Below, piece by piece: positions 3,678 to 60,153 of a stretch of 64,000 nucleotides of DNA. The position numbers and the translations under genes were made by a program. Positions within the stretch are counted from its first letter, which is position 1, and every line of letters begins with the position of its first letter. This stretch comes from Umezawaea beigongshangensis (GTDB lineage: Bacteria > Actinomycetota > Actinomycetes > Mycobacteriales > Pseudonocardiaceae): the NCBI RefSeq assembly GCF_016464305.1, contig NZ_JAEIOJ010000009.1:186001-250000 (forward strand), given 5' to 3'. The notes beneath the pieces were generated by a model. That model made no database searches and was not told where the DNA came from. It saw nothing but the letters and a program-made list of their open reading frames with translations.

Positions 3678-4418
3678 TCAGTCCTGGACGGTCGGCCGGA
3701 TGGTGATCTCGCCGATCTCGACGTCGTCGGGCTGTTCGACGGCGAAGGCGATGGCGCGGGCGACGGCCTCCGGCCGGATCGCGAACTCGGCCATGTTCTC
3801 CCGGACGGCGCCACGCAGCACGGGATCGTCGATCGAGTCCGCCAGTTCGGTGCTGACGTAGCCGGGCGAGATCGAGGTCGTGCGCAGCACGCCGTCGGTG
3901 GACTCCTGCCGCAGACCCTCGACGACGGTGCGCACGGCGTTCTTGGTCCCGGCGTAGACCGCCATGGTGGGCGTGATCTTCAGCCCCGCCGTGGACAGCG
4001 TCGTCACCAGGTGGCCGCGTCCCTGACGGCGGAACACCGGCAGTGCCGCAGCGACGCCGTGCAGCACGCCGCGCACGTTGACGTCGATCATCGCCGACCA
4101 GCCGTCGACGTCCAGGTCCGCCACGGGTCCGATCTTGCTGATGCCGGCGTTGCCCACCAGCACGTCGAGCCGGCCGAACTCGGCCACGGCCCGATCGACG
4201 AGCCGGTGCAGGTCCTCGCGGCGGGTGACGTCCACCGCGCAGGCGACGGCACGGCCGCCCCGATCGCGGATGTCGCGCGCGAGCGCGTCGAGGCGGTCCT
4301 CGCGGCGCGCGCCGAGGACGACGGCCGCGCCGCGTTCGGCCAGCAGTCGTGCCGTCGCCTCGCCGATGCCGCTGCTGGCCCCCGTGATGGCGACGACCTT
4401 GTGGGTGATGCCCGTCAT
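3678..4418 (-). CDS. SDR-family NAD(P)-dependent oxidoreductase
   Basis: A 246-residue classical short-chain dehydrogenase. The Rossmann motif TGASSGIG is at 12-19, R38-R39 after beta-2 suggest NADP preference, NAG is at 90-92, and the catalytic residues are N114, S142, Y155 and K159 (YAGTK). It is closest in pattern to the YdfG/serine-dehydrogenase-like group; the substrate is unknown. The ATG at 4418 lies just downstream of two GGACACGTGTCC palindromes shared with the divergent TetR gene, so it is probably that regulator's target. Confidence 0.92.
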   Translation of the reverse strand: MTGITHKVVAITGASSGIGEATARLLAERGAAVVLGARREDRLDALARDIRDRGGRAVACAVDVTRREDLHRLVDRAVAEFGRLDVLVGNAGISKIGPVADLDVDGWSAMIDVNVRGVLHGVAAALPVFRRQGRGHLVTTLSTAGLKITPTMAVYAGTKNAVRTVVEGLRQESTDGVLRTTSISPGYVSTELADSIDDPVLRGAVRENMAEFAIRPEAVARAIAFAVEQPDDVEIGEITIRPTVQD

Positions 4419-41730: not shown

Positions 41731-41800
41731 CGTCCCGGCGCGGGAGCCGGGTCGCCGGTGCGTGCAGGAGGAGGGCGGATCGGGTGCGAGGATCGACCAC

Positions 41801-43345
41801 GTGTTCTCCGGCGACTTCGAGGTGCACCTGACCGGTTCCGAGTGGAAGGGGGACGAGCTCGCGGCGTTCGCCGGGCGGCACGGCGCGAAGTTCAGCCACA
41901 TCCGGCTCGACCGCGGTGCGACGCCGTCCCAACCGATGCTGACCGTCTCGGGCAGCGGCACCCTGGCCCAGCTGCGCGAGCTGGCCGCGCGGTGGCGGAC
42001 CGACCTGGAGGCGGCCGGTCTGGAGGTGCTCCGGGTGAAGATCGAGGCGGCACCGTGGAACGAGGGCGTGCCGTCCTCCGACGAGGACGCGCGCGACGAC
42101 CTGTACTTCGAGCACCACGTGAAGGTGCTGCTGCCGACCGGTGACCTCCGCACGATGGCCGCGCTCGACTCGGCGATCCACGAGCACGCGGCCCGCGCGT
42201 CGCGCAACGCGCGGCGCACGCGCGACGACGCGCACGAGGAGCGGTTCGTCACCCAGCGCTGTCGCGGTGTGGGCCGGTCGACGGCTCGCGGCCGGCTCGA
42301 CGCGCTGCTGGCGGCACTGCGCGACGGCGGGTTCGCGGTGCTGGAGGTCGAGGAGGAGTACGTCGTCCACGACGACGCGCTGCACGTCGACCGGGGCTGG
42401 CTGGAGGCCGGGCCGCTGGGGCACCGGCGGGTGCGGGAGGAGCAGCGGCTGCTGGCCCCGTCCGCCGAGGGCGGCGACTACCCGTCGACCTACCGTCCGC
42501 TGGCGGTGACGCCGGAGCGGGGCGTGCGGCAGGAGGTCGTGTTCGACCCGGCGCTCAAGCACTTCGACCGCGCCTTCCGGACGGGTGAGCCGGTGTTCGA
42601 CGACGCGGCCGAGGGCGAGCGCTGGCGCACCGCGCGGCGCGCGGCGATGACGCACGTGCTGGCGGTCGTGGCGGCCTCGTCGTGGGCCGGGCACCTGGTG
42701 CTGCGGGGCAGCGTCGTGCTGCGGGCGTGGCTCGGCGACACCGCCCGCGAACCCGGTGACCTGGACTTCGTGGTCGTCCCGCACACCGTGGACTCCGACG
42801 GCGAGGAGACGCGGGCGATGCTGGAGGGCCTGGTGGCCGCCGTCGCCGCCGACCCGGGTCCTGGCCTGCGCGCGGACCAGGTGGTGTCCGAGCACATCTG
42901 GACCTACGAGCGGGTGCCCGGCAGGCGGCTGGTGTTCCCGTTCGACGTCGACGGCCTGCCGGGGGGCGCGGTGCAGGTGGACCTCGTGTTCGGCGAGCAC
43001 CTGCCCGAGGAGCCGATCGCGGTCGAGGTCCCGCGGGTGGGCAGGCCGATGCTCGCCGCGACGCCGTCCCTGTCGCTGGCGTGGAAGTTGCAGTGGCTGA
43101 TGACCGACTCCTACCCGCAGGGCAAGGACCTCTACGACGCGGTGCTGCTCGCCGAGCACACCACCGTGCCGCTGGCTCTCGCCCGCGACCTGATGCGTCC
43201 TGAACTCGGCGCGCTGGCCGACGAGTTCACCGCGCGGTCCGTGCTGTCGCTGACGGTCGACTGGGACAACTTCCGCGGCGAGCACCCCGGTGTCGAGGGC
43301 GACGCGACGTCGTGGCTGCACCGGCTCGCCGCGGCACTCGGGTGA
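41801..43345 (+). CDS. AbiEii-like nucleotidyltransferase with duplicated N-terminal domain
   Basis: 514 residues. Two similar N-terminal units are visible: about 1-90 (FEVHLTG, then HGAKFSHIRLDRGATPSQPM and VLRVKIEAAPWN) and about 100-200 (YFEHHVKVLL, ERFVTQRCRG, LEVEEEYVVHDD). The C-terminal half is an AbiEii/DUF1814-type nucleotidyltransferase with G303-S304 and the metal pair D320-x-D322 (GDLDFVV). It lacks the usual paired antitoxin gene upstream. GTG 41801 has GAGGA 8 bases upstream. Its stop overlaps a GTG that opens a short downstream remnant. It may modify RNA or nucleotides; function unproven. Confidence 0.8.
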   Translation: MFSGDFEVHLTGSEWKGDELAAFAGRHGAKFSHIRLDRGATPSQPMLTVSGSGTLAQLRELAARWRTDLEAAGLEVLRVKIEAAPWNEGVPSSDEDARDDLYFEHHVKVLLPTGDLRTMAALDSAIHEHAARASRNARRTRDDAHEERFVTQRCRGVGRSTARGRLDALLAALRDGGFAVLEVEEEYVVHDDALHVDRGWLEAGPLGHRRVREEQRLLAPSAEGGDYPSTYRPLAVTPERGVRQEVVFDPALKHFDRAFRTGEPVFDDAAEGERWRTARRAAMTHVLAVVAASSWAGHLVLRGSVVLRAWLGDTAREPGDLDFVVVPHTVDSDGEETRAMLEGLVAAVAADPGPGLRADQVVSEHIWTYERVPGRRLVFPFDVDGLPGGAVQVDLVFGEHLPEEPIAVEVPRVGRPMLAATPSLSLAWKLQWLMTDSYPQGKDLYDAVLLAEHTTVPLALARDLMRPELGALADEFTARSVLSLTVDWDNFRGEHPGVEGDATSWLHRLAAALG

Positions 43346-43753: not shown

Positions 43754-45010
43754 TCAGGTGGGGGAACCGGAGGTGCGGTCGAGTTCGGGGCTCTCGTCCT
43801 CCGGAGCCGGGTCGCGGGAGAACCCGCGCAGGGTGGGACTGATCGCGGCCAGCACGGTGACCACGGCGATGGCCGCGGCGCACACCAGGACGGCCCGGTC
43901 GTCGGGCAGGAACTCGGCGAGCAGGCCGCCCACCGCGGGGCCCGCCGCGGCGGCCACGCCGCTGGCCACCCCCATCACCCCGCTGAGCCTGCCGCGCAGG
44001 CGGTCCGGGGTGAGCAGGAGCTGGTGGGTGGTGATGGCGGTGTTGGCGGCGGGCGCCAGGAACGCCATGGCGGCGAACAGCACGCCCGTCGCGTAACCGC
44101 TGCGCAGGAACACCGCGAGCGGGGTGAGCAGGGTCAGCCCCCAGAACACGCCCGTGATCAGCGCGTACGGACTGAACCTGGCGTGCAGGCGCGGTGCGGC
44201 CAGTGCGCCGAGGATGCCGCCCGCACCGAGCATCGCGGCCATCACGCCCAGTTCGGCCGCTCCGACGCCGCGCTCGCTGCCCAGCACGACGATCACCAGG
44301 TAGTACGCGCTGAAGAACAGGTTGACGCTGATCGCGCACAGCGCGGTGACCCGCAGCCGCCGGTGGCCCCACACCCAGCGCACGCCCTCGACCACGTCGC
44401 GGCCCAGGTGGGGCGCCGGGCCGGTGGGCGCCGGGTGCGGCGGGACGCGGACGAACAGCAGCGCGACGAACGCGACCACGTGGGTGACGACGTCGAAGAC
44501 GAACGGGACGATCCGGCCAGCGGCGAACAGGACGCCGCCCAGGGCGGTGCCCCCGAGCTGGGCCGCGTTGGAGCGTGCCGCGTTCATGGCCACGGCCGCC
44601 GGGACCTGCTCGGTGGACACCAGTCTCGGCAGCGTGGCGTCCTCCGCGGGCTCGAACAGCGCGCGGCACAGGCCGATCACCGCGGCGGCGGCGATCAGGT
44701 GCACGACTCCCGCCGCGCCGGTCCACAGGGCGAGGACGAGGCCCGCCAGGGCGACCGCCTGCGCGGCCTCGCAGGCGAGCATGATCTTCTTGCGGTTCCA
44801 CCGGTCGGCGAGCGCGCCCGCGGGCAGGCCCACGACCAGCTGCACCACCGCCACCGCGCCGAGCACCGTCCCCGACTGCGCGGCCGAGCCGGTCACGGCC
44901 AGCGCCAGCAGGGGGAACGCGAACATCGACGCGCTGAACCCGGTCTCCGAGATCGCCTGGCCGCCCCACAGCAGGCCGTAGGCGCGGTTGCGCGCGAGCG
45001 ACGTGGTCAT
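43754..45010 (-). CDS. MFS exporter of the NRPS operon, EntS-like
   Basis: 418 residues and about 12 hydrophobic helices, with the EntS/enterobactin-exporter-type N-terminus [20 protein letters not shown], then [18 protein letters not shown] after TM2 and [15 protein letters not shown] in the second half. The ATG overlaps the NRPS stop (ATGA), so synthesis is coupled to the assembly line. Its expected role is export of the finished peptide, in line with siderophore exporters of this subgroup. A general drug exporter is the alternative. Confidence 0.9.
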
Positions 45011-48000
45011 GCGCCGGTCCCCCGGCAGTCCCGCGCGATGCCGCGCAGCGCGTCGCCGAACGCGGCGGCCACCCGTTCCACGGTGGACCGGTCGTGCCGG
45101 TCCGGCTGGTAGTACCAGGAGAACTCCAGGCGCCCCTCGTGCACTCCGCCCACCACCTCCAGCAGGTGCGCGGCACCGTTCGCGGGGTCCTGCTCGCGGC
45201 CGACCGGCGGGAGCGAGGCGTGGTAGAGCCCGTCTCCGGCCGACGTGTCGTCGCCCTGCCCGAGGTAGTTGAAGGCGATCTCCGGGGCCGCCCCGCGTGC
45301 TCCTGCGTCGCGCGAGTACCGCAGGGCGCCGTACCCGAGGCCGTTGCCGGGAACAGCGCGCAGCTGCCGCCGCACGGACTTGACGAGGTCGCGCCAGCGC
45401 GGCTCTCCGGGCGGGACGTCCAGCGCGACGGGGAACAGGGTGGTGAACCAGCCGACGGTGCGGGACAGGTCGATGTCGTCGGCGAACTCCTCCCGTCCGT
45501 GGCCCTCCAGGTCGATCGTGACCGCCCGCTCGCCGGTCCACCCGCTCACCGCCCGCGCGAGCGCGGCGAGCAGCACGTCGTTGATGCGGGTGCGGTAGGC
45601 GCCGGGAGCGGTGTGCAGCAGCGCGTCGGTGTCCTCGGTTCCCAGCAGGACCGGCACGACCTCCGGTGCGGTGCCCGGTCGCCCGGTCTCCCGGTCCACG
45701 GGCAGCGCGCGGGCGGGCACCGCGTTCGCCCAGTGCTCCCGCTCGTGGTCCAGGCCGCCGCCGAGCGCGTGGTCGCGCAGCCGGTGCGCCCAGTCGCGGA
45801 ACGAGGTCGTCTTGGCGCCCAGGTCGATCGCCTCGCCCGACGCGGCCTGCCGGTGCGCCCGGTCGAGGTCCTCGAGCAGGATGCGCCAGGACACGGCGTC
45901 CACGACCAGGTGGTGGGCGGCGACGAACAGCAGCGGACGGCGTCCGGCGCCGAGGTCGAACAGCTCGGCGCGCAGCAGCGGAGGCACCGCGAGGTCGAAG
46001 CTCGCGTGCGCCTCGTCGGCGATCCTCTCCACGGCGGCCGTCCGCTCCGCCTCGTCCACGGCGGACAGGTCGTGCCGCCGCAGCGGTGCGGGCACGCCGA
46101 CCGGGGCGTTGTGCTGCCGCCACCGGCCGTCGACCCGCTCGAAGCTCAGCCGCAGCGCGTCGTGGTGCGCCACGACCGCCTCCAGCGCCGCCCGCAGGGG
46201 CCGCTCGTCCGCGTCCGCCGCGAGTTCGACCAGGACGGACTGGTTGAAGTGGTGCGGGTTGGCGGTGTGCCCGGCGAAGAACCAGTGCTGGATCGGGGTG
46301 AGCGGCACCTCGCCGACCACCTCCTCCCGCGTCACCGGCTCGTCGTCCAGTTCGGTGACGACCCCGGCCAGCTCGGCGACGGTCTGGTGCCCGAACAGGT
46401 CCTTCGAGGTCATCCGCAGCCCGGCCTGCCGCGCCCGGTGCACCACCTGGATGCTGAGGACGGAATCGCCGCCGAGGTCGAAGAAGTTGTCGTGCGCGCC
46501 GATCGGATCGCGGCCCAGGACCTCGGTCCAGATCCTGGCGAGCGCGGTCTGCACGGGTCCGTCCGGCGGCACGGACGACGTCGTCGGCGGTGGGGCGTCC
46601 GGCGCGGGCAGCGCGGCGCGGTCCAGCTTGCCGTTGCGGGTGAGCGGCAGTTCCGCCAGCGCCACGAACGCCGGGGGAACCGCGTGCTCGGGCAGGGAGC
46701 GGGCGAGGAACTCCCGCAGCTCCTCCGGCGACGGGGTCCTCTCCCCCGGCACCAGGTAGCCCACCAGGCGTCGGTGTCCGTCGTCCTCGCGCACCGACGC
46801 CGCCGCCCCGGCGACGTCCGGGTGACCGAGCAGCGCGGCCTCGACCTCGCCGAGTTCGAGGCGGAACCCGCGGATCTTGACCTGCTCGTCGGCGCGGCCT
46901 CGGTACTCCAGCTCACCGTCTGCGGTCCAGCGGGCGAGGTCGCCGGTGCGGTACATCCGCGATCCGGGAGCGCCGTGCGGGTCGGCCACGAACCGTTGCG
47001 CGGTCTGGCCCGGCCGGTCGAGGTAGCCGCGCGCCAGACCGTCGCCCGCCACGTACAACTCACCCGGCACACCGACCGGCACCGGCTCCAGCGCCGCGTC
47101 CAGCACGTACAGGCGCGTGTTCCAGATCGGCCGCCCGATCGGCACCGCACCCGCCGCCAACACCACACCCGGCTCCACCCGGTGCACCACACACCCCACC
47201 GTCGTCTCGGTGGGCCCGTACTCGTTGACCACCACCGCACGCGGATGCGTCCCGCGCCACGCGTCCACCGCCGCACCCAACAACTGCTCACCACCCACGA
47301 CCAGATCACCGGTCGGCGACAGGTCCTCCGACAGGGAAGCCAGAACCGGCAGGTGACTCGGCGTCGCCTTCAAGAACGAACACTGCGCACCCGGCCCGCT
47401 CTCCGCCAGATCGGCGAACCGGATCGCGCCACCGGCCAACAACGGCCCGAACAGGGTCGTCACCGTCAGGTCGAACGACACCGACGAGTGCAACACCGAC
47501 ACACCAGACAGACCCGGATACGCCGACACCGCCCACCGCAGGTAGTTCACCACCGCACCATGACCCACCACCACACCCTTGGGCGTACCCGTAGAACCCG
47601 ACGTGTAGATCACGTACGCCGGATGCTCCGGCCGCAACCGGCGGACACGACACGCGTCGTCCGGGTCCGTCTCCGGCAAACCAGCGGTGTCCAGCACGGC
47701 CACCGGATCGTCCAGCACCAGCACCGGAGCGCAATCACGCAGCATCAACTCGACGCGCTCACGCGGATACGACGGATCAACCGGCACGTACGCCGCACCG
47801 GCCTTCACCACCGCCAGCAACGCCACCAGCAACTCCACCGACCGCGGCAGCACCACCGCCACCCGATCCTCCGCACCCACCCCCGCACCGATCAACCGGT
47901 GCGCCAACCGGTTCGCCCGCACCCCCAACTCCCGATACGTCAACGACCTCCCACCCTCGACCACCGCCACCACATCCGGCGTCCGATCCACCTGACGAGC

Positions 48001-51000
48001 GAGCAACTCCGGCAGCACCACCGCCGAAAGCCGGTGAACGGTGTCGTTCGCCCCCTCCAACACCCGTGCACGCTCGGCGACCGTCAGCAGGGGCAGCTCT
48101 CGGACCGGCCGCGCCGGATCGGCGACGATCCCGTCCAGCAGCACGCGCAGCCAGCCGATCAACCGCCGGATCGTGGCGGCGTCGAACAGGTCGGTGTTGT
48201 AGTTGACCGATCCGCTCAGGCCGCCCTCGTGCTCCTCGAACTGGAGGAGCAGTTCGAAGCTCGCCGTCGTCAGCGGGAGGGCGAACTCCTCGGCGATCGG
48301 GCCGGACACCGCCGGGGACACAGCCGTCGGGGCCTGGTCCCTGGTGTTCTGCAGCGACACCATCGTCTGGAACAGGGGCGTGCGGCTGGTGTCGCGCACC
48401 GGTTGCACCGCGTCCACGACGCGTTCGAACGGCACGTCCTGGTGGGCGAAGGCGTCGAGCACGGTGTCCCGCACCTCGCCCAGGAACTCGCCGAAGGACC
48501 GTGTGCCGTCCACGGTGGACCGCAGGACCAGCGTGTTGACGAAGAAGCCGATCAGCGGCTCCAGCTCCACCCGGTCGCGCCCGGAGGTGACGGTGCCGAC
48601 CGCGACGTCGTCCTGGCCCGACCACCTGCTCAGCAGCACCTGGCACGCCGCCACCAGCGTCGTGAACAGCGTGCAGTTCCTCCCGCGCGAGAGGTCGCGC
48701 AGACCGGCGACCAGGCCGGTGGGGAGGTCGAAGTCCAGCCAGGCGCCGTTCGTGGTCCGCTCGGCCGGGCGCGGCCGGTCGACGGGCAGGTCGAGCGGGG
48801 TGAGGCCGCCGAGCCGGTCCCGCCAGTGCGCGAGCTGCTCGTCCAGCACCGGTCCGTCGAGGTGCTCGCGCTGCCACACCGCGAAGTCGGCGTACTGGAC
48901 CGGCAACGGCGGCAGCACGGGCTCCTCGCCGCTTGCGAACCCCGCGTACAGGGCGGTCAGCTCGCGGGTGAGCACACCGGAGGACCAGCCGTCGGTGACG
49001 ACGTGGTGCAGCACGAGGAGGAGCACGTGCTCTCGGGGGGCGAGCCGGATCAGCCGCGCGCGCAGCAGCGGTCCGCGGCGCAGGTCGAAGGGACGGCGGT
49101 TCTCCCGCTCCAGCAGCTCGGCCAGCCGGGTCTCGCGGTCCTGTTCGGACAGTGCGCTCAGATCGGTCACCGGCACGCGGACCTCGTGCGGCGGGCCGAC
49201 GACCTGCACGCCGCGTCCCTCCACCGCGTCGAACGTGGTCCGCAGCGTCTCGTGCCGCTCGACCAGCGCCGTGAGCGCCCGGTCGAGGGCGTCGGCGTCC
49301 AGCTCGCCGCGCAGCCGCAGGGCGGTCGGCGACACGTACTCCGTGCTGCCGGGGTCGAACTCGTCGAGGAACCACAGGCGCTGCTGGGCGAACGACAGCG
49401 GCAGCGGGCCGCCGCGCGGCACCGCCGTGACGCCCGGTGTCGTGGCACGGCCGGTCGGCAGCGCGGCGGCGAACCCGCCGGGGGTGGGGTGCGTGAACAG
49501 CGTGCGCGGCGACACGTCGACGCCGAGGGCCTCGCGGACCCGCGAGGCGATCCTCATGCTGAGGATGGAGTCCCCGCCCAGCTCGAAGAAGTCGTCGTCG
49601 AGACCGACCCGGTCGAGCCCGAGGACGTCCGCCCACACGGCGACCAGCTCGCGTTCGACGGGGGTGCGGGGCGGCACGTGCTCCGCACTCTCCGGCCGTT
49701 CACCGGGAGCGGGCAGCGCACGCCGGTCCACCTTGCCGTTCCGGGTCATCGGCAGCGCCTGCAGCGCCACGAACGCGGCCGGCACGAGGTGCTCCGGCAG
49801 GGTCCGGCGCGACCGGGCCCGCAGCTCGGAGGCGTCCAGGCCCGACACGACGTAGGCGACCAGGCGCGCCACCCCCGGCACGTCCTCGCGGGCGACCACG
49901 AGCGCTTCGGTGACCTCCGGGTGCGCCAGCAGCGCGGCCTCGACCTCGCCGGGCTCGACGCGGAACCCGCGGATCTTGACCTGCTCGTCGACCCGGCCGA
50001 GGTAGTCGAGCTGTCCGTCCGCCGTCCAGCGGACCCGGTCACCCGTGCGGTACAGCCGCGAGCCCGGCTCGCCGAACGGGTCGGCGACGAAGCGCTCGGC
50101 CGTCGTGCCGGGCCGGTTCAGGTAGCCCCGCGCGAGCTGCACCCCGGCGAGGTGCAGCTCTCCGGGCGCGCCCACCGGGACCGGGGACAGCGACTCGTCG
50201 AGCACGTGGCACCGGACGTTGCCCGTCGGCCGCCCGATCAGCGGCCGGTCACCGGTGATGCGGCAGGACACCGCGTCGACGGTGACCTCGGTGGGCCCGT
50301 AGTAGTTGTACGCGGTGACTCCCGGTGTGCCGCTCAGCTCCCGCCACGGGGCGGGGCCGGTGGCCTCTCCGCCCAGCAGCACCGTCCGCGGGCGGTGCGC
50401 GCCGGTCAGCAGTCCGGCGGGCAGGAGCTGCTGGAGGTAGGTCGGAGTGACGTCCAGGAAGTCGATCCGGTGGTCGCGCACGTACCGGACGACCGCGCGC
50501 GGGTCCAGACGGGTGTCGTCGTCGAGGACGTGCAGCTCGTGCCCGTCGATCAGGTGCAGCAGCCCCTCCCAGGACGTGTCGAAGGAGAACGAGGCGGTGA
50601 GCGCGGCCCGCACCCGGTCCCGGTCGGCGTCGGTGAGGAAGGTCCCGCGGTGCTCGGCGAGCAGGTTGTGCAGGGAGCGGTGCTCCACGACGACGCCCTT
50701 GGGCCGCCCGGTGGAACCGGAGGTGTGGATGACGTAGGCGGCGTTCGCCGGGGTGGGCCGGACGGCGACGGGTGCGCCGTCCCGGCGCGCGCAGCGGTCG
50801 CGGACCTCGGCCAGGTCGTCGAGCACGACGACCGGGGCGGCGTCCTCCAGCAGGAGCGCCACCCGCTCGCGCGGCAGGCCGGGATCGACCGGCAGGTGCA
50901 CCGCACCCGCCTTGAACACCGCGAGGAGGGCGACGACCGCCTCGGCCGAGCGCGGGAGCACCACGGCCACGACGCGCTCCGGCCCGGCCCCCCGCTCCAC

Positions 51001-54000
51001 CAGGTGCCGCGCCAGGGCGTCGGCGCGCGCGTTCAGCCCGGCGAAGTCCAGGACGGTGTCGCGGAACACCAGGGCGGTGTCGCGGGGCCTGCGCGCGACC
51101 GTCGCCTCGAACACGTCCAGCACGGTTCCCGGCGGGACGTCGAGCGCGGTGTCGTTCCAGTCCGAGAGCATCCGCCGGTGCTCGTCCTCCGTCGGCCGCA
51201 CCAGCGCGCCGACGCGCTGGTGGGGATCGGCGGCGAAGCGCTGGACCACCACCGAGAGCTGGTCGGCCAGGCGCTCGGCGGTGGCCGCGTCGAACAGCCG
51301 CGGGTCGTAGGACAGCTCCAGGCCGAGCCGGTCGTGCAGGTGGGCGGTGAGGTTCAGCGGGTAGCTGGTGGTGTCGGCCGAGTCGACGTCCAGCACGCGG
51401 ACGCCCCGCTGCCCGATGCTCTCGTCGATCGGGTAGTTCTCGAAGACCACGACGCTGTCGAACAGGGCGGCGCCCGCCGGGAGGTCGCTCCAGCCCCGCA
51501 CCCTCGCCAGGGACAGGAAGTCGAAGCGCCGCGACTCGGCCTGCTCGGCCTGCGCGGCGCGCAGCCACGACACGGCGTCCCGGTTCCGGTCGACGGTCAT
51601 CCGGGTCGGCACGGTGTTGATGAACACGCCGATCATCGACTCGACGCCGGGCAGCTCGGCCGGGCGACCGGCCACCGTGGTGCCGAACAGCACGTCGTTC
51701 TCGCCGCTGTGCAGCGCCAGCAGCAGCGCCCACGCGCCTTGCACGACGGTGTTCACGGTCAGGGCGGCACGCTTCGCCGTCTCGTGCAGGCGCCGGGAGT
51801 CCTCCGGGGACAGCTCGACCAGCACCGCCTCGGAGGACTCGGCGCGGTGCGCTTCGAGCTGCGGGCGGTCGCGGGGCAGCGGGGTGGCCGCGGTGACGCC
51901 GTCGAGCGTCCGCCGCCAGTACCGCTCCGCCTCCTGCTGGTCCTGCGCGGCGAGCCACGCCAGGTAGTCGCGGAACGGCCGCCGCGACGGCACGTCGGGG
52001 TGCCGCGCCTCGACGATCGCGGCGTACTGCTCGAACACCTCTCCGAGGATCTGCGCGGTGCTCCAGCCGTCGAGCAGGACGTGGTGGGCGGTCCAGACGA
52101 GCTGGACCTCGTCGTCGGAGAGCCTGCCGATCACCAGGCGCGTCAGGGGCGGCGTCGTGAGGTCCACCCCCGTCGCACGGTCCTCCGCGAGCACGCGCTC
52201 CAGCGCGGCGGCCCGGTCGTGCTCAGGCAGCGCCCGCCAGTCGTGCTGGACGACGGGCACCCGCACCCGGCGGTGCACCACCTGGAGGGGCTGCTCCACG
52301 CCCTCCCACACCACGCTGCTGCGCAGGACGGGCGTGCGATCGACGACCCGCTGGAACGCCTCGGCGAGCGCGTCGGGCCGGGCCACCCCGCCCAGCCGCA
52401 GCCGGAACTGGTCCACGTAGGCGGTCGAGCCGGCGTCGACGAGGCCGTGGAAGACCAGACCGGCCTGCAACGGCGTCAGCGGGTAGACGTCCTCGACGTG
52501 GCGGCCGTCGCCGACGACGCGGTCGACCCCCTCCTGGTCGAGCCCGGCGAGCGGGAAGTCCGAGGGAGTGCGGCCACCGGCGTCCGGCCCGGCGCAGTGC
52601 TCGACGATCTGTCCCAGGGCCAGCACGGTGTCCTCCGCCAACCGGCGCACGGTCCGCTCGTCGTGCACCTCGGAGGAGTACTCCCAGGTCAGGTGCAGCT
52701 CTCCGGCTTCGACCACTCCGGTGACGTCGAGCAGGTGCGCGCGCGGAGAGTCCGGGTCGAGGTCCTCGCCGAGCACGTCGAGGCGGTCGCGGACCAGCGC
52801 GCCGGAGGTGTCCGCGCCCGACCCGACGTCCCACCGGCCGTGGTAGTTGACGGAGATCTGCGGCGCCGGGTCATCGCGCAGCCGGTTCGCGGGTGAGCCC
52901 TCCGCGCTCAGGTACCGCAGCGCCTCGTAGCTCGCGCCGCCGTGCGGCACGGCGCGGAGCTGCTCCTTGACCGACCCGAGCACACCGCCCCAGTCCTCGT
53001 CGCGCACGTCGAGCGCCACCGGGTACTGGGCGGTGAACCAGCCGACCGTGCGGGACAGGTCGAGGCCCTCGACGATCTCCTCCCGGCCGTGGCCCTCCAT
53101 CGTGACCACGACCCGGTCGCGGCCGGTCCACCGGGCCAGGACCCGGCCCAGCGCGCTGAGCAGCACGTCGTTGACCCGCGTCCGGTAGACCGGCGGGACG
53201 TCGTGCAGCAGCGCGTGCGTCTGCGCGCGGCCCAGGCGCACCGAGACGCTGCGGGCGGCGTCGGCGGTGTTGCGGGCGACGCGGTCGACGGGCAGAGCCG
53301 GGTCGACGCCGTCGAACACCGTCGTCCAGTGCGCGAGGTCGCCGTCCAGTGCGCCCGAGCGGACGTGCTCGGCCAGCGACCGCGTCCACCGGGTGAACGG
53401 GGTGCCGACCGGGGCGAGCGGCACGCCGCGGTGCGCCGCCTCCAGGTCGTCGAGCAGCACGCGCCACGACACCCCGTCCATCACGAGGTGGTGCGCGGTG
53501 AGGAACAGCCGCGGTGCCCGTCCGGTGCCGGCGGAGAACAGCACGGCCCGCCACAGCGGTCCCCGCTCCACGTCCAGGGAGTTCTGCGCGGCCAGCGCCG
53601 CCCGGTGCGCCGCGGCGTCGCGCTCCGCGGGGTCCACGGCGGACAGGTCGACGTGCTCGACGACGTCGGCAGCGTCCGTCGCGGCGGGGTGCTGCACCCA
53701 GCTCCCGTCGACCCGCGAGAACCGCATCCGCAGCGCGTCGTGGTGCTCGGCGAGGCGGGCCAGCGCTCGGCACAGCGCTTCCGGGTCGACGTCGGGGGCG
53801 AGTTCCAGGTGCACGGAGGTGGTGAAGCGCCGGGAACCCGCCGCGCTCGCCAGGAACGACGACTGGACAGGTCCGAGCGGTGCCGGTCCCGCCACGTCGG
53901 CCTCGGCGACCGGTTCGGGCAGTGCCCGCGCCTGCACGACCGTCGCCAGTTCGGCGATGGTCTGGTGCAGGAACACGTCCTTGGAGGAGGTGGCGAGGCC

Positions 54001-57000
54001 CGCCCGGCGAGCTCGGGAGACGACCTGGATGCTCAGGATCGAGTCACCGCCGAGACCGAAGAAGTTGTCCTCGACGCCGACCCGCGCCACACCGAGCGCC
54101 TCGCTCCAGATGCGGGCCAGCTCCGCCTCGACCGGCGTGCGCGGCGGCACGTACCGGTGCACCGGCGCGTCGTCGTCCTCGGGGGCCGGGAGCGCGGCGC
54201 GGTCGAGCTTGCCGTTGGCGGTGAGCGGCATCGCGGACAGGGCGACCACGGCGTCGGGCAGCATGTGCGCGGGCAGTGACCGGCCGAGGAACTCGCGGAG
54301 TCCGGGAAGGGCGGGCGCGGTCGCGCCCGGTGCGGGGACGAGGTGGGCGACCAGCCGCGCCGGGGCCTGGCGGGCGACCACCGCCGCCTCCGCCACGTCG
54401 GGGTGCGTCACCAGCACCGCTTCGATCTCGCCCGGCTCGACGCGGAAGCCGCGGATCTTGATCTGCTCGTCGGACCGGCCCAGGTACACCAGGACGTCGT
54501 CGGCTCGGCGGCGCACCAGGTCCCCGGTGCGGTACATCCGCTCCCCCGGCTCGCCGAACGGGCAGGCCACGAACCGTTGCGCGGTCTGGCCCGGCCGGTC
54601 GAGGTAGCCGCGCGCCAGACCGTCGCCCGCCACGTACAACTCACCCGGCACACCGACCGGCACCGGCTCCAGCGCCGCGTCCAGCACGTACAGGCGCGTG
54701 TTCCAGATCGGCCGCCCGATCGGCACCGCACCCGCCGCCAACACCACACCCGGCTCCACCCGGTGCACCACACACCCCACCGTCGTCTCGGTGGGCCCGT
54801 ACTCGTTGACTACCACCGCACGCGGGTGCGTCTCGCGCCACGCGTCCACCGCCGCACCCAACAACTGCTCACCACCCACGACCAGATCACCGGTCGGCGA
54901 CAGGTCCTCCGACAGGGAAGCCAGAACCGGCAGGTGACTCGGCGTCGCCTTCAAGAACGAACACTGCGCACCCGGCCCGCTCTCCGCCAGATCGGCGAAC
55001 CGGATCGCGCCACCGGCCAACAACGGCCCGAACAGGGTCGTGACGGTCAGGTCGAACGACACCGACGAGTGCAACACCGACACCCCGGACAGGCCCGGAT
55101 ACGCCGACACCGCCCACCGCAGGTAGTTCACCACCGCACCGTGACCCACCACCACACCCTTGGGCGTACCCGTGGAACCCGACGTGTAGATCACGTACGC
55201 CGGATGCTCCGGCAGCAACCGGCGGACACGGCACGCGTCGTCCGGGTCCGTCTCCGGAAGCCCCTCCGTGTCCAGCACGGCCTGCGGATCGTCCAGCACC
55301 AGCACCGGAGCGCAATCACGCAGCATCAACTCGACGCGCTCACGCGGATACGACGGATCAACCGGAACATAAGCCGCACCGGCCTTCACCACCGCCAGCA
55401 ACGCCACCAGCAACTCCACCGACCGCGGCAGCACCACCGCCACCCGATCCTCCGGCCCCACCCCCGCACCGATCAACCGGTGCGCCAACCGGTTCGCCCG
55501 CACCCCCAACTCCCGATACGTCAACGACCTCCCACCCTCGACCACCGCCACCACATCCGGCGTCCGATCCACCTGACGAGCGAGCAACTCCGGCAGCACC
55601 ACCGCCGAAAGCCGATGAACGGTGTCGTTCGCCCCCTCCAACACCCGTGCACGCTCGACGACCGTCAGCAGAGGCAGTGCGCGCAGCGGACGCGTCGCGT
55701 CGGCGGCCACACCGTCCAGCACCAGCCGCAGCCAGCCGATCAACCGCTGGATCGTGGCGGCGTCGAACAGGTCGGTGTTGTAGTTGACCAGGCCGTCCAG
55801 TCCGTCGTCGCTCTCCTGGAACTGCACCAGCAGGTCGAAGGTCGCCGTGACGAGCGGCGGCGCGATCTCCTCCACGTGCAGCCCCGGCAGGGCGGCGCTC
55901 CCGCCGGGGGTGTTGTGCAGCAGGACCGCGACCTGGCACAGCGGGGTGCGGCTGGTGTCGCGCACCGGTTGCAGGTCGTCTACCACTCGATCGAACGGGA
56001 CGTCTTGGTGGGCGAAGGCGTCCAGGACGGTGGCCCGCACGTCGCGCAGGAAGTCCTCGAACGGTCTCGTCGCGTCCACAGTGGACCGCAGGACCAGCGT
56101 GTTGACGAAGAAGCCGATCAGGCCCTCCAGCTCGGTCCGCTCCCGCCCGGAGACGACGGTGCCCACGGCGACGTCGTCCTGGCCGGACCAGCGCGACAGC
56201 ACCAGCTGGCAGGCGGCCAGCAGCGTCATGAACAGCGTGCCGTCCCCGCGGCGGGACAGCTCCGCGAGGGCCGCGGTGGTGCCGCCGGGAACACCGAACT
56301 CCAGCAGCGCGCCGTTCCTCGTGCGCACGGCGGGCCGCGGCCGGTCGGTGGGCAGCTCCAGCGGGGGCACGGCGTCGAGCTGACGCCGCCAGTAGCCGAG
56401 CTGGTCGTCCAGGGCCGGACCGGTGAGCTGGTCGCGCTGCCACACCGCGAAGTCGGCGTACTGCACCGGAAGGTCGGGCAGTGCCGCGTCCTCCTGCCGC
56501 AGTGCGGCGGTGTAGAACGCGCTCAGCTCGCGCAGGAGGACACCGGAGGACCAGCCGTCGGTGACGATGTGGTGCAGGACCAGGACCAGCACGTGCTCGT
56601 CGGCGGCGAGGCGGACGAGGCGCGTCCGCAGCAGCGGACCGCCGCGCAGGTCGAACGGGTGGCTGGCCTCCTGCGCCAGCAACGCGCGCAGCGCGTCGTC
56701 CCGGTCGGTCTCCGCGCTCAGGTCCAGCAGCGGCACGCGCACCTCGTGCGGCGGGTGCACGACCTGCGTGCCGACGCCGTCGACGGTGTCGAAGGTCGTG
56801 CGCAGGGACTCGTGCCGCTCCACCAGCGCGGTCAGGGCGGTGTTCAGCGCCTCGGCGTCCAGCTCGCCGCGCAGCCGCAGCGCCGTGGGCGAGACGTACT
56901 CGGTGCTGCCCGGCTCGAACTGCTCCAGGAACCACAGGCGCTGCTGGGAGAACGACAGCGGCAGCGGGCGGTCGCGCGCGGCGACGGGGACGGTGGTCCT

Positions 57001-60000
57001 GGACCGCTCACCGCTCCCGCGGGTCAGGGCGGCGGCCAGCCTGGCGGGGGTGGGCGCGGTGAACAGCAGCCGCGCGGGCACGTCCGCGCCGAGCGCGGCG
57101 CGCAGGCGCGAGGTGATGCGGATGCCGAGGATCGAGTCACCGCCCAGCGCGAAGAAGTTGTCCTCCACGCTCACCCGCTCCAGGCCGAGGACCTCGGACC
57201 ACACCGCGGCGACCAGGCGCTCGACGTCGTCGCGCGGGGCGACGTGGTGCTTCCGGTCGGCGGACGGGTCCGGCGCTGGCAGGGCGCGCTGGTCGAGCTT
57301 CCCGTGCCGGGTCAGCGGCAGCCGGTCGAGCGCGACGAACGCCGACGGCACGAGGTAGTCGGGCAGCGACCGGTTGAGCAGGTCCCGCAGCTCGACCGGG
57401 GTGGGCGTGTCCGCACCGGACGCGACGGTGTAGGCGACCAGTCGCGCACCGCCCGGCCCGTCCTCGCGGGCCACCACCGCGGCCTGCCCGACGGCGGGGT
57501 GCGTCAGCAGCGCGGCCTCGATCTCACCGGGCTCCACCCGGAAGCCGCGGATCTTCACCTGCTCGTCGACCCGGCCGCGGTAGTCGAGCTGCCCGTCCGC
57601 CGTCCACCTCACGAGGTCGCCGGTGCGGTAGAGGCGCGAGCCGGGTTCGCCGAACGGGTCGGGCACGAACCGCTCCGCGGTCTGCCCCGGTTTGCCGAGG
57701 TACCCGCGGGCGAGCTGCGGACCGGCCAGGAACAGCTCGCCGGGCACGCCGGTCGGGGCCGGTTCCAGGTTCTCGTCCAGCACGTGCGCCCGCAGGTTGG
57801 CCAGCGGGCGTCCGATGAGCGGCCGGTCCCCGGTGACCGTGCGGCGCACGGCGTCGACGGTGGTCTCCGTGGGCCCGTAGTAGTTGTGGACGGTGGTGCC
57901 GGTGATCCCGCTCAGCTCGCGCCACAGCGACTCGCCCAGCGCCTCGCCGCCGAGCATGAGGTGCCGCGGCCGGTGGTCTCCGGCGAGCAGTCCGGCCGGC
58001 AGGAGCTGCCGCAGGTAGGACGGCGTCAGGTCGAGGAAGTCGACGCGGTGCTCGCGCACGTACCGGGTCAGCGCCTCGGGGTCGAGGCGGACGTCGTCGT
58101 CCAGCAGGTGCAGTTCGTGGCCGTCGGCCAGGAGCAGCGGCCCCTCCCACGAGGTGTCGAACGACAGCGCCGCCGTCAGCGCGACCCGCATCGTTCGCGC
58201 GCCGAACACCGCGCGGTGGTCGATCAGCAGGTTCATCAGCGCGCGGTGCTCCACGACGACGCCCTTCGGCGTGCCGGTGGAGCCCGAGGTGTGCACGACG
58301 TAGGCGGCGTCGCCCGGCGCGGGCCGCGACCGGTCCGGGGCCGGGCCGTCGGCGAGGTCACCGGTGTCGCGCAGCACGACCACCGGGTCCGTGTCGCGCA
58401 GCAGCAGCGCGATCCGCTCCGCGGGCAGCCCGGGGTCCACCGACTGGTGAACCGCGCCCGCCTTGAGGACGGCGAGCAGCGCCACCACGGACTCGGCCGA
58501 CCTGGGCAGCACGACGGCCACCACCCGCTCCGGCCCCGCGCCGCGGCGCACCAGTTCGCGCGCCAGCCGCTCGGCGCGGGCGTCCAGCTCGCCGAAGGTC
58601 AGCGACGTGTCCCGGAAGACCAGCGCGGTCCGCTCCGGGTGCGCGGCGGCGGTGGCCTCGAACACGTCCACGACCGTCGTGCCGGGAACGGGCACGTCCG
58701 TGGCGTTCCACTCCACCAGCAGGCGGCGCCGCTCCTCCTCGCCGACCAGCGGCAGGTCGGCGACCCGGCTGTCCGGGTGGTGCGCGACGGCGGTCAGGAG
58801 CGTCGTCAGGTGTCCCACGAGCGCGTCGACGGTGCCCGCGTCGAACAGGTCGGTGCTGTACTCGACGACGCCGCCCAGCTCACCGCCCGACTCGTGGAAC
58901 TCCACGCTGAGGTCGAAGTTGGACGACCTCCGGTCCACGTCGACGTCCCGCACGGCGAGTCCGGCGAACGACGACGGGGTGGACGGCGCGCTGTGCAGCA
59001 GCACCATCACGTCGAACAGCGGGTTGCGGCTGGCGTCGCGCTCGGCGCCCACGGCGTCGACGACGCGCTCGAAGGGCACCTCGTCGTGGGCGAAGGCGTC
59101 GAGCACGGTGCCGCTGACGCGGCCGAGCAGCTCGCGGAACGTGGCGGACCGGTCGACGGCCGATCTCAGCACCAGTGTGTTGACGAAGAACCCGACCACC
59201 CGCTCCAGCTCGGGCCGGTTGCGTCCTTGCACGACCGTGCCCACGGCGACGTCGTCCTGGCCGCTGTAGCGGGCGAGCAGCACCTGGCAGGCCGTGAGCA
59301 GCGTGCTGAACAGGGTGGTGTCCGCGGCCAGGGCGAGGTCGGCGAGCCGCTTGGCGACCTCCGTCGGCACGGCGAACTCGCGGACCGCGCCCGCCGTGCT
59401 CCGCTCGGCGGGCCGGGGCCGGTCGGTGGGCAGCTCCAGCGGCACGACACCGCTCAGTGCCCGCTTCCAGTGCTCCAGGTGCTCGTCCAGCACGGGCCCG
59501 GAGAGCCTGTCGCGCTGCCAGGCGGCGAAGTCCGCGTACGCCAGGGGCTGTTCGGGGAGGACGGCGGTCTCGCCCCGCGCGGCGGCGGTGTAGAGCGCGG
59601 CGAGCTCCTCGGTGAGCACGCCCATCGACCAGCCGTCGGTGACGATGTGGTGCACGCAGAGGACGAGCACGTGGTTCTCCGGGTCCTGCCGGACCAGCAG
59701 CGTGCGCAGCAGCGGTCCGGTCCGCAGGTCGAAGGGCCTGGCGTACTCCCGCGCGAGCACCCCGTCCACGTCCCGCTCCGCCACGTCCAGCACGGGCAGC
59801 GCCACCTCGTGCGGCGGGTGCACCACCTGGACGGCGTCGCCGTCCGCCTCGTCGAAGGTGGTCCGCAGCGACTCGTGCCGGGCCACCAGCTGCCGCAGCG
59901 CGGCGGTGAGGGCGGGCACGTCCAGCGGCCCCAGCAGTCGCAGGGCGAGCGCGCTGTTGTACTCGGGGTCGCCGGGCCGGAACTGGTCGAGGAACCACAG

Positions 60001-60153
60001 GCGCTGCTGGGAGAACGACAGCGGCAGCGGACGGCCGCGGTCGGCGGCGGGGATGGCGTCGGATCGTCCGGCCGCTCCCGCCAGCCTGCGGCGCAGCGCG
60101 TCCTGGAGGTGGGCGGGCAGCGCCGCGATGCGGTCCTGGCGTGACGACGTCAT
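45007..60153 (-). CDS. Four-module nonribosomal peptide synthetase, C-A-T-C-A-T-E-C-A-T-C-A-T-E
   Basis: 5048 residues. Approximate domains (bases, 5' to 3'): C1 60040-58760, A1 58700-57260, T1 57230-57060, C2 56985-55700, A2 55650-54200, T2 54140-53930, E1 53880-52600, C3 52520-51200, A3 51150-49700, T3 49640-49470, C4 49430-48120, A4 48080-46600, T4 46540-46370, E2 46310-45020. C1, C2 and C4 have HHIVTDG/HHVVTDG motifs. C3, after E1, has HHVLLDG and should accept a D-residue. Each T has GGDS with the pantetheinyl Ser. E1 has HHLVMDG, E2 HHLVVDA. Specificity residues 235-331: A1 DTWDMGYVD, A2 and A4 DLTKVGEVG (Asn type), A3 DTWDLGYVD (not assigned). The last domain is E; there is no thioesterase. 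ATG 60153 has GAGGG 7 bases upstream. Confidence 0.97.
46984..48098 (-). repeat. Recombined Asn A-domain block, copy in module 4
   Basis: A 1115-bp block aligned without gaps to 54565-55679 at about 97% identity (some 28 differences by eye). It spans most of the A4 N-terminal core, including the specificity residues DLTKVGEVG. Codon use inside (TTG, GAT, GGT, TAT, CGT) differs from the flanking CTG/GAC/GGC/TAC-rich sequence. The edges fall in the C-A linker and before the A-domain C-terminal lobe. Confidence 0.85.
54565..55679 (-). repeat. Recombined Asn A-domain block, copy in module 2
   Basis: The partner of 46984-48098, offset 7581 bp. Outside this block the A2 and A4 domains and their flanks diverge clearly: for example A2 continues [13 protein letters not shown] and A4 [13 protein letters not shown]. 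The similarity is therefore confined to the substrate-binding part and not a whole-module duplication. Confidence 0.85.

What the first reader, a model, noticed from the sequence alone, without database searches (positions are those of the whole stretch)
46984..55679. Gene conversion or swap of the Asn adenylation core between modules 2 and 4
Bases 46984-48098 and 54565-55679 align without gaps at about 97%, while the DNA just outside diverges normally. The shared block covers the substrate-binding part of the A domain with identical specificity residues (DLTKVGEVG). Its codon use (TTG, GAT, GGT, TAT, CGT) is unlike the rest of this NRPS. The simplest story is that an A-domain core of foreign or distant origin entered one module and was copied to the other. 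The edges would be natural A-subdomain exchange points.
Basis: seen in the sequence. Interest (0 to 1): 0.68.

Follow-up and report, generated by a model that had tools for sequence, protein, structure and literature searches.

The report
Asparagine-selecting core copied between synthetase modules
In a giant bacterial peptide-making enzyme, the DNA for the part of one module that picks asparagine was copied over the matching part of another module; relatives use other amino acids at one or both of these positions, so this is a clear natural example of how such enzymes change their product, of a kind already known.

Summary
In the 5,048-aa, four-module NRPS gene at 45007-60153 (-), a 1,116-nt block is 97% identical between modules 2 and 4 (30 differences; 19 of 26 changed codons silent). 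Flanks fall to about 65-85% and the E domains to about 47% aa. The block carries a codon signature found nowhere else in about 100 kb (TTG 39% of Leu codons against 1%).

I found 27 orthologous four-module genes in the same bacterial family. In them module 2 is Thr in 25 and Asn in 2; module 4 is Asn in 7 and something else in 20. C- and E-domain trees place own module 2 with module 2s and own module 4 with module 4s. The block tree joins own modules 2 and 4 (100/100) inside the family's Asn-core clade.

Just outside the block, module 2 carries Asn-type sequence and module 4 non-Asn-type sequence (clear on the 3' side, weak on the 5' side). So the last copy most likely went from module 2 to module 4. 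The foreign-codon stretch lies inside the copied tract, so that core was resident before the copy; no donor was found.

A-core exchange between modules is known from microcystin and wollamide. Here the C-A linker travelled too. Verdict: real, new member of a known kind.

The parts
45007..60153 (-). NRPS gene, 5,048 aa, C-A-T / C-A-T-E / C-A-T / C-A-T-E
   Evidence: ORF, Pfam domains, motifs
54565..55680 (-). Identity block in module 2 (aa 1492-1863): C-A linker plus A core up to just before motif A7, Asn code DLTKVGEVG
46984..48099 (-). Identity block in module 4 (aa 4019-4390), the matching copy
54622..55647 (-). Foreign-codon stretch in module 2 (aa 1503-1844)
   Evidence: two-state codon model; codon counts; edges are good to about 10 codons
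47041..48066 (-). Foreign-codon stretch in module 4 (aa 4030-4371)
54484..54564 (-). Asn-type sequence directly after the block in module 2 (aa 1864-1890)
   Evidence: profile score +18.1; Asn references mean +17.5, non-Asn -15.4; BLAST
46903..46983 (-). Non-Asn-type sequence directly after the block in module 4 (aa 4391-4417)
   Evidence: profile score -16.4; BLAST best matches are mostly Thr-type modules
55681..55728 (-). End of the C domain just before the block in module 2 (aa 1476-1491), weakly Asn-type
   Evidence: profile score +3.5; reference ranges overlap
48100..48147 (-). End of the C domain just before the block in module 4 (aa 4003-4018), weakly non-Asn-type
   Evidence: profile score -3.3; reference ranges overlap
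52561..53883 (-). Epimerization domain of module 2, groups with module 2 E domains of orthologs
45022..46314 (-). Terminal epimerization domain of module 4, groups with module 4 E domains of orthologs

Best explanation
The block is a gene-conversion tract between two paralogous modules of one NRPS gene. Shown: a linker-plus-A-core unit (aa 1492-1863 / 4019-4390) is shared by modules 2 and 4, while each module keeps C and E domains that belong to its own position. Both A domains carry the Asn code, so the enzyme should add D-Asn at both positions. Inferred, in order: (1) module 2, ancestrally Thr, became an Asn module by taking up an Asn cassette that runs from the end of the C domain to about the A8 hinge; (2) the core of that module was replaced by a core of unlike codon use, probably from a homologous cluster in another organism; (3) module 2 then served as template and its linker plus core replaced the matching part of module 4, which probably was not Asn-selecting at that time. 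The process is inferred to be ordinary non-reciprocal homologous recombination. My probabilities: copying between the two modules 0.95; foreign core resident before the copy 0.8; direction module 2 to module 4, 0.7.
For: 97% identity, with silent sites equally conserved, between sharp limits. Codon signature in both copies and nowhere else in about 100 kb, not a trait of Asn cores nor of orthologous cores. Foreign stretch narrower than the copied tract. C and E trees by position, core tree by substrate. Orthologs: module 2 Thr in 25 of 27. Context beyond the block Asn-type in module 2, non-Asn in module 4. L161, next to the own gene in the C and E trees, has module 2 Asn and module 4 non-Asn, the inferred state before the copy. 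L143 is an independent copy of the same kind, module 4 to module 2.
Against: No donor of the foreign core was found. The linker in both own modules resembles that of Asn module 4s rather than Thr module 2s, so an earlier module 4 to module 2 step, or import from a module 4, is needed. The 5' context signal is weak. Core and flank divergence of own module 4 from its orthologs are similar, so a native module 4 core is not excluded by distance alone.
Confidence: 0.72

Rival explanations
1. Same conversion, opposite direction: the Asn core was resident in module 4 and was copied onto module 2 (Thr to Asn); the sequence beside the block in module 4 was replaced later.
For: Module 4 is Asn in 7 of 27 orthologs and in the Lentzea/Saccharothrix relatives. 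The linker type in both modules is that of Asn module 4s. L143 shows just this direction. Own core sits in the tree about where a native module 4 core would.
Against: Needs a further exchange beside the block in module 4 after the copy; the non-Asn context is clear on the 3' side.
Confidence: 0.22
2. Both modules received the same foreign core independently.
For: Foreign codon use is in both copies; L143 and L161 show that module 2 took up Asn cores more than once.
Against: The copied tract also shares host-like margins of about 11 and 19 residues and the tract edges coincide, which one internal copy explains better.
Confidence: 0.04
3. Assembly artefact: a repeat copied or mixed by the assembler in a 61-contig draft.
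For: Draft genome; blocks of 1.1 kb at 97% can confuse short reads.
Against: 30 differences spread over the block, an open frame through both copies, a single 332-kb contig, and flanks that match orthologs at both positions.
Confidence: 0.03
4. Recent duplication of whole modules, or strong selection keeping two old cores alike.
For: Modules 1/3 and 2/4 are paralogous pairs.
Against: E domains only about 47% aa alike, flanks belong to separate position clades, and silent sites agree only in the block.
Confidence: 0.01

Closest known systems
Microcystin synthetase McyC to McyB1 A-domain exchange (PMC8097286, citing Fewer 2007, Meyer 2016)
   Same: The specificity-giving part of one module is copied into another module of the same pathway; recurrent; changes the residue at one position.
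   Different: There the stretch is reported as A3 to A9 and the modules lie in different genes; here both lie in one gene, the tract starts at the C-domain end and stops before A7, and it carries a codon tag.
Wollamide WolG1 A2 intragenomic recombination (PMC9205934)
   Same: Core replaced inside an A domain while the flanks stay; tested there by enzyme assays.
   Different: Donor there is another cluster in the genome and the tract spans A2 to A5/A6; here donor and recipient are paralogous modules with the same outcome in both.
McyA2 replacement giving [D-Leu1] microcystin (PMC3640908)
   Same: Described as gene conversion of nearly the whole specificity-giving portion, with C and E trees by position and A trees mixed.
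   Different: Cyanobacteria, position 1 only; no two-position homogenisation.
Linker plus A-domain substitution in pyoverdine PvdD (PMC7486941)
   Same: Upstream exchange point at the very end of the C domain, so that the linker moves with the A domain; C-A junction is a natural breakpoint hotspot.
   Different: Engineered, and exchanges the A domain rather than stopping before A7.

Membership tests
A-core exchange / gene conversion between NRPS modules | Sharply bounded tract of high identity between modules, silent sites included | tested here: met
A-core exchange / gene conversion between NRPS modules | Tract tree conflicts with flank trees | tested here: met
A-core exchange / gene conversion between NRPS modules | Tract includes the specificity-giving residues | tested here: met
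   all nine code positions lie in the block and are identical
A-core exchange / gene conversion between NRPS modules | Substrate at the recipient position differs in orthologs | tested here: met
   module 2 Thr in 25 of 27, module 4 non-Asn in 20 of 27
A-core exchange / gene conversion between NRPS modules | Usual trend: native C-A linker and C-terminal A subdomain stay in place (PMC8097286) | tested here: not met
   the linker lies inside the tract; the C-terminal subdomain stays. This is a trend, not a requirement.
A-core exchange / gene conversion between NRPS modules | Activated amino acid shown by assay or product | not testable with these tools
   Asn is read from the code only
Horizontally acquired segment | Codon use unlike the host gene | tested here: met
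Horizontally acquired segment | Closest relative found in a donor lineage | tested here: inconclusive
   best matches 64-70% aa, all in orthologous clusters; no near donor
Asn-selecting NRPS A domain | Code DLTKVGEVG with core motifs present | tested here: met
   that this code means Asn is general knowledge, not tested

The most novel reading that the evidence does not exclude
This NRPS family has two interchangeable positions (modules 2 and 4) whose linker-plus-core units move repeatedly within the gene, in both directions, while modules 1 and 3 stay nearly fixed: a natural cassette exchange with preferred exchange points (C-domain end; A7-A8). Support here: three lineages with Asn in module 2, one of them (L143) an independent module 4 to module 2 copy, and three substrate types in module 4.
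Probability: 0.4. Interest if true: 0.65.

Novelty: new member of a known kind. Interest (0 to 1): 0.45.

Why it matters
The codon signature acts as a tag that orders the events: a core from elsewhere settled in one module, then was copied to a second module in a slightly larger tract. The set of orthologs gives likely ancestral states and native exchange points, including the linker moving with the core, which bears on where NRPS engineers should cut. It also predicts a testable product with D-Asn at two positions.

Tried and rejected
Whole-module duplication: rejected by flank trees and orthologs. Low GC3 as a general trait of Asn cores: rejected. Donor search in genome contigs, the order, the class and a TTG-rich genus: no near core (the closest anywhere is about 70% aa). 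NRPS genes with the most similar codon use are in Streptomyces seoulensis (L064), genus g20 (L027, L127) and Kutzneria sp. 744 (L051), but the Asn cores of genus g20 are only 54-59% identical. Silent differences as a sign of which copy is older: 13 against 6, not significant. Another own module as source of module 4's non-Asn flank: best 83% nt (module 3), no recent copy. Product identity: not found by searching specificity codes in papers.

Full report
OBSERVATION. In frame they are aa 1492-1863 (module 2) and aa 4019-4390 (module 4), with 30 nt and 26 codon differences, 19 of them silent. The differences are somewhat clustered (10 within 100 nt, permutation p 0.01) and one identical run is 247 nt (p 0.016), which suggests a patchy or repeated tract. 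Outside, a gapped codon alignment gives roughly 63-75% nt in the C-terminal A subdomain, 83-84% in the 40-codon windows just before the block, 63-89% in the C domain, and 33-60% aa in the E domain.

CODON USE. Inside the block TTG is 39% of Leu codons against 1.1% in the rest of the gene; TAT and CAT occur there and nowhere else in the gene. GC3 is about 0.84 against 0.95 in the C domains of the same modules. A scan of the window and neighbouring cluster DNA found this signature only in the two cores; the score was trained on those cores, but the margin is very large. Other Asn cores in high-GC genes do not differ from their genes (0.001 +/- 0.030, n = 64, which includes the own two), and orthologous Asn cores have TTG at about 0.10 or less. 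A two-state codon model puts the foreign stretch at aa 1503-1844 / 4030-4371, inside the identity block. So the copied tract includes about 11 and 19 residues of host-like codons, as expected if the foreign core was already resident in one module when it was copied.

ORTHOLOGS. A family-wide search with the module 3 core found many homologous genes. I fetched 26 of them plus G015 and read the specificity codes. Module 1 is DTWDMGYVD in nearly all, and module 3 is usually close to it. Module 2 is DFWN[VI]GMVH (Thr for DFWNVGMVHK in PMC9113097) in 25, and Asn in L143 and L161. Module 4 is Asn-type in 7, DAL-type in 14 and DAS/DAV-type in 6. The own gene is the only one of the 28 with an identical Asn code in both positions; L143 has DLTK and DLNK. 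More distant relatives (Lentzea californiensis L040, Saccharothrix sp. L041, G050 and others) have DAWSAGLVD at module 2 and Asn at module 4, and L040 and L041 also end after an E domain. (In one search and earlier tables the third code letter of non-Asn modules reads differently because of a different alignment.)

TREES. In the C- and E-domain trees own module 2 lies with module 2s and own module 4 with module 4s; forcing own modules 2 and 4 together is rejected (AU p 0.012 and 7e-86). In the core tree own modules 2 and 4 are sisters (100/100) inside the clade of this family's Asn cores (97/87), and forcing all module 2 cores together is rejected (p 0.007). L143's module 2 Asn core groups with the module 4 cores of its own close relatives (100/100), whose module 2 is Thr: an independent copy from module 4 to module 2, with edges near the C-domain end and the A8 motif.

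DIRECTION. A profile score trained on Asn and non-Asn modules was applied to the sequence just outside the block. On the 3' side (27 aa) Asn references average +17.5 and non-Asn references -15.4; own module 2 scores +18.1 and own module 4 -16.4. On the 5' side (16 aa) the scores are +3.5 and -3.3, the same signs but with overlapping reference ranges. BLAST agrees: right after the block own module 2 matches mostly DLTK modules and own module 4 mostly Thr-type modules; further on, each tends towards its own position. Module 2 thus holds the Asn core in Asn surroundings and module 4 holds it in non-Asn surroundings. The simplest reading is that the last copy went from module 2 to module 4. L161 (module 2 Asn, module 4 DALFVGAVV), which branches next to the own gene in the module 4 parts of the C and E trees, shows the inferred state before the copy. 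The opposite direction remains possible.

FUNCTION. Both modules should load Asn and, having E domains, pass on D-Asn. The upstream gene (60217 to beyond the window) carries five codes DAYWWGGTF or DAYFWGVTF, assigned to Val in PMC9113097. Domain coordinates and A-domain positions suggest A-T-C-A-T-E-C-A-T-E-C-A-T-E-C-A-T, so a nonapeptide Val-D-Val-D-Val-D-Val-Val-X-D-Asn-X-D-Asn is inferred, with X unknown (acidic code residues hint at a basic side chain; my guess).

CONTEXT. Exchange of A cores between modules is well documented: microcystin (PMC8097286, PMC3640908) and wollamide (PMC9205934). Baunach et al. [quoted passage not shown] here the linker lies in the tract, and it also moved in L143, in line with the C-A breakpoint hotspot and the success of linker-plus-A substitutions in Calcott et al. 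(PMC7486941). The finding is a new, unusually well-polarised member of a known kind.

Noticed in passing
L142-L167 and G015 (L120+L121), modules 2 and 4: Across 27 orthologous genes modules 1 and 3 keep nearly the same code while modules 2 and 4 vary (Thr/Asn; Asn/DAL/DAS types), as if these two positions were hotspots of core exchange.
   Followed up: partly
L143 (G224), module 2: Independent Thr-to-Asn change in module 2 by a copy related to module 4 of the same lineage, with edges at the C-domain end and near A8.
   Followed up: yes
L098 (Kitasatospora humi), both Asn modules; L102 (Streptomyces sp. ISL-100): Asn cores with GC3 well below the adjoining C domain (0.77 and 0.79 against 0.92-0.94; 0.75 against 0.88), similar to the case here.
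   Followed up: no
L104 (Archangium lansinium) 10063 and 16480; L114 (Herpetosiphonaceae MAG) 5113 and 11479: Pairs of Asn cores within one locus that are nearly identical in the core tree; possibly further core copies or recent module duplications.
   Followed up: no
L145 (G179), modules 1-2: Module 1 lies in a separate 1209-aa frame from the rest (4917 aa), and the module 2 C region fits poorly: a frameshift or sequencing error.
   Followed up: no
45007-46314, and L040, L041, L044: The assembly line ends with an E domain and no thioesterase, in the own gene and in relatives; how the peptide is released is unclear.
   Followed up: no
43754 to about 45000 (-): The frame directly downstream of the NRPS gene reads as an MFS-type transporter, by eye from the translation; a likely exporter of the product.
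   Followed up: no
41762-43345 (+): ORF with a Pfam AbiEii nucleotidyl transferase domain (E 2e-19) close to the end of the cluster.
   Followed up: no
L064 (Streptomyces seoulensis A01): NRPS gene whose codon use is the closest of all loci held to that of the foreign core.
   Followed up: no
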